Virus record (IMG/VR): IMGVR_UViG_3300005184_000001
Span: 1-24,178 of that record
Direction: 5' to 3' (one strand)
Origin: a virus
DNA: 24,178 nt
Part shown: one piece after another, positions 1-24,178 of the stretch
Position numbering within the stretch: the stretch's first letter is position 1
Layout of the letters: each line of letters opens with the position of its first letter
Translations under genes and position numbers: made by a program
Notes under the pieces: generated by a model
Told to the model about the DNA's origin: nothing
The model's input: the letters and a program-made list of their open reading frames with translations, nothing else
The model's database searches: none

Positions 1-30
1 GCCTTGCAGATCAGCCAGGGTCGCTCGACC
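1..30. repeat. Left copy of 30-bp terminal direct repeat (circular joint)
   Basis: The first 30 bases are identical to the last 30 (24149-24178). The capsid reading frame passes through the joint without interruption and reaches its stop codon at 24132-24130. This is the overlap expected when a circular or circularly permuted molecule is assembled, rather than a biological terminal repeat. The unique circle is therefore 24,148 bp. Confidence 0.93.
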
Positions 31-8596: not shown

Positions 8597-8839
8597 ATGA
8601 TGAACGATGAGCTGTTGAGCGCATCGCAGGCAGCCGACTACCTCGGCGTCAGCCGCGTCCGGATCAATCAGCTGGCAAACCTGGGACGGATCAAGCGCGA
8701 GGAAATCGGCGGCTACTATCTGTATCGCCGCTCGGAGCTTGACCGGTGGCGGGAGTCGCCCAAGAGTGTTGGAGGTCGCCCAAAAAATCAGCCGAGTAGT
8801 GTAGAAATAAACAGAGGGCCTGAGTACGTAAGCGTCTAA
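8597..8839 (+). CDS. Excisionase-family helix-turn-helix DNA-binding protein
   Basis: 80 residues. Residues about 7-53 follow the excisionase/MerR-like winged-helix pattern closely: LLSASQAADYLGVSRVRINQLANLGRI, a wing (EEIGGYYLYRR) and the terminal RSELDRWRE. A basic polar tail follows. Proteins of this type direct excision (Xis/Cox) or act as small repressors. The frame is open further upstream, but the ATG at 8597 fits the promoter and AAAGGGG; a second ATG follows immediately. The last codons and the stop lie inside a long hairpin (8810-8867). Divergent from the SWIM gene and next to attP and integrase, it is the best candidate for Xis or for the lysis-lysogeny switch. Confidence 0.82.
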   Translation: MMNDELLSASQAADYLGVSRVRINQLANLGRIKREEIGGYYLYRRSELDRWRESPKSVGGRPKNQPSSVEINRGPEYVSV

Positions 8840-8867
8840 AGCTCAATACGTACTCAGGCCCTCTGTT
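8810..8867 (+). terminator. Long perfect hairpin at the end of the HTH gene
   Basis: Inverted repeat with perfect 21-bp arms (8810-8830 and 8847-8867) and a 16-base loop that contains the TAA stop (8837-8839). The arms contain CAGAGGGCCTGAGTACG and its complement. It should stop plus-strand transcription before it enters attP; the following DNA (TGTCTGCGCTGCTTTCTT) is only partly T-rich. The stem is longer than needed for a terminator. Confidence 0.72.
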
Positions 8868-10322: not shown

Positions 10323-11231
10323 ATGCTGAATAGTACCATACCGCGCGACGTTGTTAATGCTCAACCTCGACCAAAGACCAGGACCCGCCAGGCCCAGGCA
10401 TTTCGCACTGGCGAGACCGTCCTCGACGGATCGACGCACGGCGTCGGCCTGCTCTTGTTTTATAAGTACCTTGTTGCCCGCTGTTTCACGGAGTCGAGCT
10501 GCGCGCTGTCCACGATGGACTGTGCGTGTGATAACAATGTCGATCCGCGCACCATCCGGCGCTATGGGCCGATGCTTGAGACGCTCGGCCTCGTTCGGCG
10601 TGCTCCCCTTCGGCGTGGGGTGTGGCGCTACACCATCACGGCCTATGAGCCCGAGGTCGAGCCGATCGCGCCCGCGCTTGCGCCTGTTCCGGAAGTCGTG
10701 GCGATCGAGCCCGATCCCTTCTTTTTGTCGCCTCCAAACGGATCGATCGATCCGGATAAGCGGATCGATCGATCCGTTTCATCCTTTAACGGATCAAGAG
10801 ATCATCAAGGAGAGGCATCCGGGCCAGGCGGCGATCCTGGTTTGGTCGGAGAGGGTTTTTTCAGCCGGGAGGAAGCCGGGAACGCGGAGACAATCGCCTT
10901 GCTTCGTGCCGAGCGCGTCTCGCCGGCGATGTGCCGCCAGCTCGCGTGTCTCCCGCCGTCGTATGTCCGCGAGCAGATCGGCGCCGCCCGGCGGTGCGGC
11001 CGCGGGCGCGACTGGCCAGCCTTCCTGGTGGGCGTGCTGCGCACCGGTGGGGTGTGGGGTTTGTCGGGCTCTCACCCGACGGTGCGGCACGAGCCGCCCG
11101 GCCATAATGCGCCGCCGGCGGCGCTGCCTGGCATCTGTCCAGCGTGCGGCGGTATCTTACCGGGTGAGTGGCAGGGGAATTGCCCGAAGTGTCACCCGGA
11201 GTTGTTTGAGCGTGTGGGAGATGTGCCATGA
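10323..11231 (+). CDS. Winged-helix, zinc-ribbon protein; candidate replication initiator
   Basis: 302 residues. Residues about 40-108 resemble a winged helix (VGLLLFYKYLVAR, a DCACDNNVDPRTIRRYGPMLETLGLV recognition region and a WRYTIT wing), as in phage and plasmid initiators. A long Pro-rich low-complexity linker (about 110-185) follows, then a helical segment (TIALLRAERVSPAMCRQLACLPPSYVREQI) and a C-terminal zinc ribbon C272-x2-C275...C287-x2-C290. It is the first gene of the early operon (RBS AGGA before ATG 10323) and overlaps the next by ATGA. Its linker-coding DNA contains a pair of palindromes (10736-10779), recalling lambda O, whose gene contains the origin. The initiator role is inference; a transcription regulator is the alternative. 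Confidence 0.6.
   Translation: MLNSTIPRDVVNAQPRPKTRTRQAQAFRTGETVLDGSTHGVGLLLFYKYLVARCFTESSCALSTMDCACDNNVDPRTIRRYGPMLETLGLVRRAPLRRGVWRYTITAYEPEVEPIAPALAPVPEVVAIEPDPFFLSPPNGSIDPDKRIDRSVSSFNGSRDHQGEASGPGGDPGLVGEGFFSREEAGNAETIALLRAERVSPAMCRQLACLPPSYVREQIGAARRCGRGRDWPAFLVGVLRTGGVWGLSGSHPTVRHEPPGHNAPPAALPGICPACGGILPGEWQGNCPKCHPELFERVGDVP
10736..10779. repeat. Paired palindromes inside the initiator-like gene; candidate origin
   Basis: A perfect 19-bp inverted repeat: left arm 10736-10754 (AAACGGATCGATCGATCCG), a 6-base spacer GATAAG, right arm 10761-10779. Each arm contains the same 16-bp palindrome CGGATCGATCGATCCG, so the locus is also two iterons in direct repeat, 22 bp apart. A partial third copy, AACGGATCAAGAGATC, follows at about 10788-10803 beside an A/T-richer stretch. 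The DNA encodes a low-complexity linker (residues about 139-153) where sequence constraint from the protein should be weak. Confidence 0.65.
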
Positions 11232-11843: not shown

Positions 11844-12193
11844 TGCCGACGAAAACGAGCCACATCACGCGCATCTTTGAGCGCCTGGTCAGAGAGAGCC
11901 GGCGAACGCGCATGATCACCCGCGCATCGCTCACCCACGGCGCGCAGCTGGCGGTCCTGGTGGACCTCGGCACGATCACGCTCACGATCAAGCGCCAGAA
12001 TCAGCCGCTGGGTGAGCGCGAGCTCGTGACCTTCCGACGGGATTGCGGCGTGCCGGAGGATGCCGAGGTTCTCACGCCCGAGATGCAAGGAACGCGCTTT
12101 ATTGCCGTGCGGGTTGAGTACGAGGATGGCACGACGGCGATCGAGCAAGAGACGTGGCGCTATGTAACCTGGCGCTGGAAGGATGAAGCATGA
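11843..12193 (+). CDS. Hypothetical protein, early operon
   Basis: 116 residues, not recognised. A basic N-terminus (HITRIFERLVRESRRTRMITRASL) precedes a beta-rich part (AQLAVLVDLGTITLTIKRQ, TRFIAVRVEYEDGTTAIEQETWRYVTWRW). The ATG at 11843 shares a base with the HNH stop (TGATG) and the end overlaps the next start as ATGA, so it is fully embedded in the coupled operon. The basic start and compact size would suit a nucleic-acid-binding protein, but this is only composition. Confidence 0.68.
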   Translation: MPTKTSHITRIFERLVRESRRTRMITRASLTHGAQLAVLVDLGTITLTIKRQNQPLGERELVTFRRDCGVPEDAEVLTPEMQGTRFIAVRVEYEDGTTAIEQETWRYVTWRWKDEA

Positions 12194-12732
12194 TGATCCT
12201 GACACCGTATACGCTGATGCCGGCATTGGTCCTGGATCTGGACGGAACGATCCGATTGAGCAAGAGTGGCGATTTCATCAACGGCCCCGGCGATGTCGCC
12301 CTGTTCGGCGATGTCGAGGCGAAGCTATGGGAGTATCGAGAGAAGGGGTTCATCATCTGCGGCGTCTCCAACCAGGGCGGCGTTGCCTTCGGCTACAAAC
12401 TGCCGTTTGATGCTGAGGCTGAGCTTGATGCAATGCTCGCGCTGTTCTCGCGGCCCCCATTCCATATCATCAAGCAGGCATACCATCATCCGAAAGGAAC
12501 CGTTCATCCCTGGAATTATCGTTCCCTGCTTCGGAAGCCGGACATCGGCATGCTGGTGCTGTGCGAGATCGACGCGTGGGAGGCCCATATCGTGATCGAT
12601 TGGGATGCAAGCCTGATGGTCGGTGATCGTCAGGAAGATCGGGAGTGTGCCGAGCGCGCCGGTATCACGTTTCAAGACGCGAACGATTTTTTTGGAAGGA
12701 TGGGCAGTGAGCACCATCGCGCCGCCATCTGA
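12190..12732 (+). CDS. HAD phosphatase, GmhB/HisB/PNKP-like
   Basis: 180 residues with the HAD motifs: I, D16-L-D18-G-T (nucleophile and acid/base Asp); II, VSNQGG with S60; III, LLRKPDIGML with K116; IV, MVGDRQEDRECAERAGI with D145 and D150. The RKPxxGM form of motif III and SNQ-G in motif II mark the subgroup that includes heptose bisphosphatase GmhB, HisB-N and polynucleotide 3'-phosphatase. The HHPKG segment matches the GmhB zinc-loop region, but its cysteines are absent. Beside an HNH nuclease in a phage early operon, a DNA 3'-phosphatase (end cleaning) or nucleotide phosphatase is plausible; the substrate cannot be read from sequence. There is no kinase or ligase domain. Confidence 0.85.
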   Translation: MMILTPYTLMPALVLDLDGTIRLSKSGDFINGPGDVALFGDVEAKLWEYREKGFIICGVSNQGGVAFGYKLPFDAEAELDAMLALFSRPPFHIIKQAYHHPKGTVHPWNYRSLLRKPDIGMLVLCEIDAWEAHIVIDWDASLMVGDRQEDRECAERAGITFQDANDFFGRMGSEHHRAAI

Positions 12733-24129: not shown

Positions 24130-24178
24130 CTAGGGAATGGTGCCGGCAGCCTTGCAGATCAGCCAGGGTCGCTCGACC
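24130..24178 (-). CDS. 3' end of the major capsid gene (other part at 1-1202)
   Basis: In the circle the capsid frame reads ...RPWLICKAAGTIP and stops at TAG, 24132-24130. Bases 24149-24178 duplicate 1-30, so only 24130-24148 are additional sequence. The short piece has meaning only when joined to 1-1202. Confidence 0.9.
   Translation of the reverse strand, partial: VERPWLICKAAGTIP
24149..24178. repeat. Right copy of 30-bp terminal direct repeat
   Basis: Identical to bases 1-30; shows that the sequence closes into a circle. No sign that it is a functional repeat, since it lies inside the capsid coding sequence. Confidence 0.93.

What the first reader, a model, noticed from the sequence alone, without database searches (positions are those of the whole stretch)
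10736..10779. Pair of 16-bp palindromes inside the initiator-like gene: candidate origin
Two copies of CGGATCGATCGATCCG, 22 bp apart, form a perfect 19-bp inverted repeat in the low-complexity linker of a DNA-binding protein gene, followed by a partial third copy and A/T-richer DNA. Lambda O and several plasmid systems hold the origin within the initiator gene. The 22-bp periodicity is about two helical turns, so both sites face the same side.
Basis: partly seen in the sequence, partly recalled or inferred. Interest (0 to 1): 0.6.

Follow-up and report, generated by a model that had tools for sequence, protein, structure and literature searches.

The report
Phage replication origin inside initiator gene
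A small circular soil phage appears to carry the start point for copying its DNA as repeated mirror-image sequences inside the gene for the protein that should bind them, an arrangement like that of phage lambda, and the same kind of repeat turns up in replication-initiator genes of otherwise unrelated phages.

Summary
Two exact copies of CGGATCGATCGATCCG (10739-10754, 10761-10776; 22 bp apart) form a perfect 19-bp inverted repeat with a degenerate third copy at 10790-10805, in the predicted disordered linker of a 302-aa protein with a modelled winged-helix DNA-binding domain. The contig is a complete circular phage genome (24,148 bp). Family searches of nearly all its proteins found no polymerase, helicase, primase or loader, so this gene is the only replication-initiator candidate. 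A motif search gave independent evidence instead. Paired GGATC-N4-GATCC dyads are rare (14 loci in 2.9 million viral contigs; 1 non-identical pair in 500 bacterial genomes). Of the six loci with identical repeated dyads, four (three protein families) lie just behind the winged helix of phage proteins that match replication-initiation (O-like) families. Spacing there is mostly 22-24 bp, as in lambda ori. Best explanation: an intragenic, lambda-O-like origin whose dyads are initiator-binding iterons. Binding, melting and initiation are inferred. The AT-rich element is weak and no lambda P-like loader was found. Works like lambda O; not shown to be a homolog.

The parts
10323..11231 (+). Initiator-like gene, 302 aa: winged helix, disordered linker, helical C-terminal domain, CxxC...CxxC motif
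   Evidence: ORF; AlphaFold2 layout; no family hit by sequence
10407..10664 (+). Winged-helix DNA-binding domain (residues 29-114)
   Evidence: AlphaFold2 on a 5-sequence alignment: mean pLDDT 79.6, pTM 0.68, H-E-H-H-E-E; Foldseek matches to many winged helices, including lambda GpO N-terminal and replication initiator models
10545..10583 (+). Predicted recognition helix (DPRTIRRYGPMLE)
   Evidence: helix 47-59 of the model; R76 and R79 aligned in all five proteins
10644..10877 (+). Predicted disordered linker that carries the dyads
   Evidence: pLDDT under 50 over residues 108-126, 128-143 and 145-185
10736..10779 (.). Perfect 19-bp inverted repeat with 6-nt loop, made of the two palindromes plus AAA/TTT
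10739..10754 (.). Iteron 1, CGGATCGATCGATCCG
10761..10776 (.). Iteron 2, CGGATCGATCGATCCG
10790..10805 (.). Degenerate iteron 3, CGGATCAAGAGATCAT
   Evidence: 1 mismatch to GGATC-N4-GATCC; same reading frame as iteron 1
10756..10805 (.). AT-richer stretch, candidate unwinding element (42% G+C over 50 bp)
   Evidence: weak: the 60 bp beyond iteron 3 are 60% G+C
10884..11045 (+). Four-helix C-terminal region, candidate contact to host helicase or loader
   Evidence: single-sequence AlphaFold2 helices 188-241, moderate confidence; function inferred
11136..11192 (+). CxxC-x11-CxxC zinc-ribbon-like motif
   Evidence: direct reading of the translation
1..30 (.). Left copy of 30-bp terminal direct repeat; the other copy is 24149-24178
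   Evidence: major capsid ORF reads across the join, so the genome is circular and complete

Best explanation
The palindromes are initiator-binding sites (iterons) of a replication origin that lies inside the initiator's own gene, as in phage lambda O. The protein of gene 10323-11231 would bind each GGATC-N4-GATCC dyad as a dimer through its winged helix, with the two strong sites on the same face of the helix (22 bp, about 2.1 turns) and a weaker third site 29 bp on. The complex would melt the AT-richer DNA at and beyond site 2, and the C-terminal part would bring in the host replicative helicase, because no phage loader, helicase or polymerase was found. Shown here: the repeats, their place, the winged-helix model, the complete genome without another recognised replication protein, and the recurrence of the same dyad in the same place of other phage initiator genes. 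Inferred: dimer binding, melting, helicase recruitment, and that replication starts here.
For: Exact duplicate palindromes beyond chance, in different codon frames. Scan of viral contigs for paired GGATC-N4-GATCC: 14 loci; six have identical repeated dyads (L130, L131, L132, L140, L141, L146), and four of these (L130, L132, L140, L146) sit right behind the winged helix of proteins matching PHROG replication-initiation or O-like families. Arrays: 3 copies (33, 24 bp), 4 (34, 22, 22), 5 (18, 23, 23, 23); homologs L140 and L146 keep identical spacing. L130 lies downstream of a Sak4-like annealing protein and a Gam-like protein. Background: no pair in 301 genomes of the phylum of a Chloroflexi MAG and one non-identical pair in 199 genomes of the phylum of an Acidobacteria MAG. 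Winged-helix model. Complete circular genome without another recognised replication gene. Lambda ori layout fetched for comparison; iterons in the middle of O bound by O, two iterons plus AT-rich region enough for unwinding (PMC7466680; PMC5043065).
Against: No homolog of the protein was found, so conservation could not be tested in its own family. Only two strong sites and one degenerate site. The AT-richer stretch is modest, and the 60 bp beyond iteron 3 are 60% G+C, unlike lambda, L130, L140 and L146 (20-32%). No lambda P-like loader was recognised. GC skew gives no origin signal separate from gene direction. Winged helices are common in repressors too. The comparison loci are themselves identified only by family matches, not by experiment.
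Confidence: 0.72

Rival explanations
1. The dyads are operator sites for the winged-helix protein acting as a transcription factor (for example intragenic autoregulation), and replication starts elsewhere.
For: The winged helix resembles many transcription regulators. An isolated half site ACGGATCGA lies near the gene start at 10426.
Against: The sites are more than 400 bp inside the coding region, not at a promoter. The same arrays sit in genes matching replication-initiation families. No other initiator was recognised in the complete genome.
Confidence: 0.12
2. The inverted repeat works as RNA: a 19-bp hairpin in the initiator mRNA that pauses, cleaves or attenuates expression.
For: Strong predicted fold, z = -5.3, no shuffle as stable.
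Against: Any two copies of a palindrome give such a hairpin. The terminator scan did not list this hairpin, there was no Rfam match, and the comparison genes have 3-5 dyads rather than one hairpin.
Confidence: 0.06
3. Chance or slippage product: (GATC)3 is self-complementary, so two short tandem runs give palindromes without function.
For: GATCGATCGATC is a tandem repeat; single 14-16-bp palindromes are not rare in this genome.
Against: Only five GATCGATC in 24 kb, four of them here; flanking CG and AAA/TTT extend the match beyond the GATC run; 6 of 5000 shuffles; the half site GGATC and its position recur in other initiator genes.
Confidence: 0.07
4. A partition (parS-like), recombination or telomere-resolution site, or a mobile palindromic element.
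For: Palindrome pairs occur at such sites (general knowledge, not tested).
Against: No ParA, ParB or protelomerase recognised; a tyrosine integrase is present; the centre GATAAG is not palindromic; the genome closes as a circle; no other copy of the element in the genome or in the phage records by blastn.
Confidence: 0.03

Closest known systems
Phage lambda O gene with ori-lambda (and Stx-phage O genes)
   Same: Dyad iterons in the middle of the gene for the initiator, spaced 20-24 bp, at codons 117-145 of 299 (here about 139-161 of 302); DNA-binding N-terminus, middle that carries the sites, C-terminal part.
   Different: No sequence homology detected; iteron sequence differs (TCCCTCAAAACGAGGGA type against GGATC-N4-GATCC); two strong sites instead of four; weak AT-rich element; no P-like loader found.
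O-like initiators of uncultivated phages L130, L132, L140, L146
   Same: Same half site GGATC, same N4 spacer, same place behind the winged helix, iteron 1 read in the frame giving GSxDP, mostly 22-24 bp spacing.
   Different: 3-5 copies with non-palindromic centres; marked AT-rich DNA beyond the array in L130, L140 and L146; proteins only 16-20% identical to this one overall.
Phage initiators L171/L190 (PHROG 1408)
   Same: Repeated GGATC units in the linker of a replication initiation protein.
   Different: Tandem 8-bp direct repeats (GGATCTAA), not dyads.
Iteron plasmids (P1, F, RK2, R6K)
   Same: Repeated initiator sites in phase with the helix (PMC5043065).
   Different: [quoted passage not shown] no plasmid Rep family matched here.

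Membership tests
Lambda-O-type intragenic origin (as a functional kind) | Repeated dyad sites inside the initiator-like gene | tested here: met
Lambda-O-type intragenic origin (as a functional kind) | Encoded protein has an N-terminal winged-helix DNA-binding domain | tested here: met
   AlphaFold2 on a 5-sequence alignment, core pLDDT about 90; a prediction
Lambda-O-type intragenic origin (as a functional kind) | Site spacing of about two helical turns | tested here: met
   22 bp between the strong sites; 29 bp to the degenerate one
Lambda-O-type intragenic origin (as a functional kind) | Adjacent AT-rich unwinding element | tested here: inconclusive
   Local G+C minimum at 10714-10813 (47%), but the 60 bp beyond iteron 3 are 60% G+C
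Lambda-O-type intragenic origin (as a functional kind) | Protein binds the sites and replication starts there | not testable with these tools
   needs DNA-binding and plasmid replication assays
Lambda O protein family (Pfam and PHROG O-like families) | Significant sequence match | tested here: not met
   no significant Pfam, PHROG or NCBIfam match; hhalign to the O-like set not significant
Lambda O/P replication module | Neighbouring helicase-loader gene (P-like) | tested here: not met
   none recognised in the genome
GGATC-N4-GATCC iteron class in phage initiator genes (proposed here) | At least two identical dyads in the linker just behind the winged helix | tested here: met
   window and L130, L132, L140, L146
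Intrinsic terminator | GC-rich hairpin followed directly by a T run | tested here: not met
   not listed by the terminator scan
Protelomerase target (telRL) | Perfect central palindrome, linear prophage with protelomerase | tested here: not met
   centre GATAAG not palindromic; circular genome; integrase present, no protelomerase recognised

The most novel reading that the evidence does not exclude
GGATC-N4-GATCC is a shared iteron class: replication initiators from several unrelated phage lineages recognise the same half site through a conserved R-[TN]-[IV]-R recognition helix and carry the sites in their own linker (seen as GSxDP peptides), so origins could be read directly from sequence in uncultivated phages.
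Probability: 0.35. Interest if true: 0.65.

Novelty: new member of a known kind. Interest (0 to 1): 0.5.

Why it matters
If true, this gives the origin and initiator of a phage with no recognised replication gene and no close relative, and the same motif marks candidate origins in several unrelated uncultivated phages. It would make origin prediction and plasmid tests possible for phages known only from metagenomes, and raises the question why unrelated initiators share one half site. A literature search found lambda-type intragenic origins but no description of this iteron; most subscription papers are not held, so absence there is weak evidence.

Tried and rejected
Homologs of the initiator: none in viral contigs, one-genome-per-species contigs, phage or plasmid records, in the loci fetched by then, or in 400 genomes of one phylum (only weak partial hits, most with stops inside). 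Single-copy palindrome hits in 26 viral contigs look like chance: no exact second copy nearby. Whole-protein AlphaFold2 without alignment was poor (mean pLDDT 49). Cumulative GC skew follows gene direction. blastn of the region in phage records: no match. Rfam and tRNA searches: nothing. My first control for repeats counted only perfect palindromes and misses interrupted dyads; it was redone for 5-N4-5 dyads.

Full report
OBSERVATION. The two copies of CGGATCGATCGATCCG lie at 10739-10754 and 10761-10776 and are the only exact matches in the window. With three flanking bases on each side they form a perfect 19-bp inverted repeat with a 6-nt loop, the second longest in the genome after one at 8810-8867. 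A degenerate third copy is at 10790-10805. Each strong copy holds three overlapping GATC sites. Two palindromes of at least 14 bp within 60 bp arose in 6 of 5000 synonymous-codon shuffles of the gene and in 2 of 100 Markov genomes; in 1.38 Mb of control loci there was no pair of identical perfect palindromes of 12 bp or more and only two identical 5-N4-5 dyad pairs, neither with GGATC. The two copies are in different codon phases, so the duplicated thing is the DNA sequence, not a peptide.

THE GENOME. The window is a whole viral record. Its ends share a 30-bp repeat, and the major capsid ORF reads across the join and stops a few codons beyond the cut, so it is a complete circular genome of 24,148 bp. 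It encodes terminase, portal, protease, major head protein, connectors, tape measure, tail spike, amidase, a tyrosine integrase and an excisionase-like protein. Nearly all ORFs that look like genes were searched; no polymerase, helicase, primase, loader or known initiator was recognised. Two fragments from other samples (L029, L030) carry identical terminase; the next relatives are 69-76% identical in terminase and do not reach, or do not share, this region.

THE GENE. The 302-aa product of 10323-11231 is the first gene of the rightward cluster. It has no significant Pfam, PHROG or NCBIfam match. Alone it models poorly, but the layout is helix-turn-helix and wing (to residue 107), unstructured 108-185, four helices 188-241, then a CxxC...CxxC motif. 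With an alignment of five proteins the first domain models as a winged helix with core pLDDT about 90. Foldseek finds winged helices in general; among viral models are proteins named lambda GpO N-terminal, replication initiator and replisome organizer, alongside many unnamed ones. The alignment behind this model was chosen because of the shared DNA motif, so it supports the fold, not homology; hhalign to the other four was not significant.

INDEPENDENT EVIDENCE FROM THE MOTIF. Because no homolog of the protein was found, I searched for the motif. Paired CGGATC-N4-GATCCG hit three viral contigs, and paired GGATC-N4-GATCC hit 14. Eight of the 14 have differing spacers and read as chance. Of the six with identical repeated dyads, L130, L132, L140 and L146 carry them directly behind the winged helix of a protein matching PHROG replication-initiation or O-like families (best E from 2e-4 for L132 to 1.9e-9 for L146); L131 has them at the end of an unidentified gene and L141 in no long ORF. 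L140 and L146 are homologs (75% identical over the first 100 residues), so this is three independent families plus the window. Spacings are 33-24, 34-22-22 and 18-23-23-23 (identical in L140 and L146); here 22-29. The window's first dyad is read in the frame giving GSxDP, as in the others. DNA beyond the array is AT-rich in L130, L140 and L146 (20-32% G+C), less so in L132 (53%) and here (60%). In bacterial genomes the pair is nearly absent: none in 301 and one with differing spacers in 199. A further phage initiator family (L171/L190, PHROG 1408, E 4.5e-35) has tandem GGATCTAA repeats in its linker.

MECHANISM. Lambda ori lies in the middle of O, with iterons at 39034-39118 of the record, 20-24 bp apart; O binds the iterons, each an imperfect inverted repeat, and two iterons with the AT-rich region suffice for unwinding in vitro (PMC7466680). 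Lambda iterons bind O dimers, in contrast to plasmid iterons (PMC5043065). By analogy, dimers of this protein would sit on the two palindromes on one face of the DNA, melt the AT-richer stretch 10756-10805, and recruit the host helicase. Everything after the anatomy is inference.

LIMITS. The own-family conservation test could not be done. The AT-rich element is weak, there are only two strong sites, no loader gene was recognised, and GC skew is uninformative. The count of six loci with identical dyads is small, and the choice to look at identical spacers was made after seeing the hits. The L132 family match is weak. I therefore put the origin reading at about 0.72 and call it a new member of a known kind: it works like lambda O, but membership of the lambda O protein family was tested and not met.

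Noticed in passing
1-30 and 24149-24178: 30-bp terminal direct repeat; the record is a complete circular genome of 24,148 bp.
   Followed up: yes
8810-8867: Longest perfect inverted repeat in the genome (21-bp arms, 16-nt loop) at the end of the excisionase-like gene, between convergent genes; probably a two-way terminator, possibly part of the attachment site.
   Followed up: no
L029 and L030 (whole contigs): 4.6-kb viral contigs from two other samples encode terminase identical to the window's, so the phage recurs across samples.
   Followed up: partly
L190:4765-4850 (minus strand, counted from that strand's start), L171: Phage replication initiation protein (PHROG 1408) with tandem GGATCTAA/GGATCGAA repeats in its linker: another GGATC-based array inside an initiator gene.
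   Followed up: partly
L131:2820-2950: GGATC-ACCG-GATCC repeats at the end of a gene for a Cys-rich protein that matches no replication family; also read as GSPDP.
   Followed up: no
L141:588-671: Three identical GGATC-GTAC-GATCC repeats about 35 bp apart in a stretch without an ORF of 100 aa or more.
   Followed up: no
12190-12732: HAD-family phosphatase resembling polynucleotide 3'-phosphatases in the early gene cluster of a small phage.
   Followed up: no
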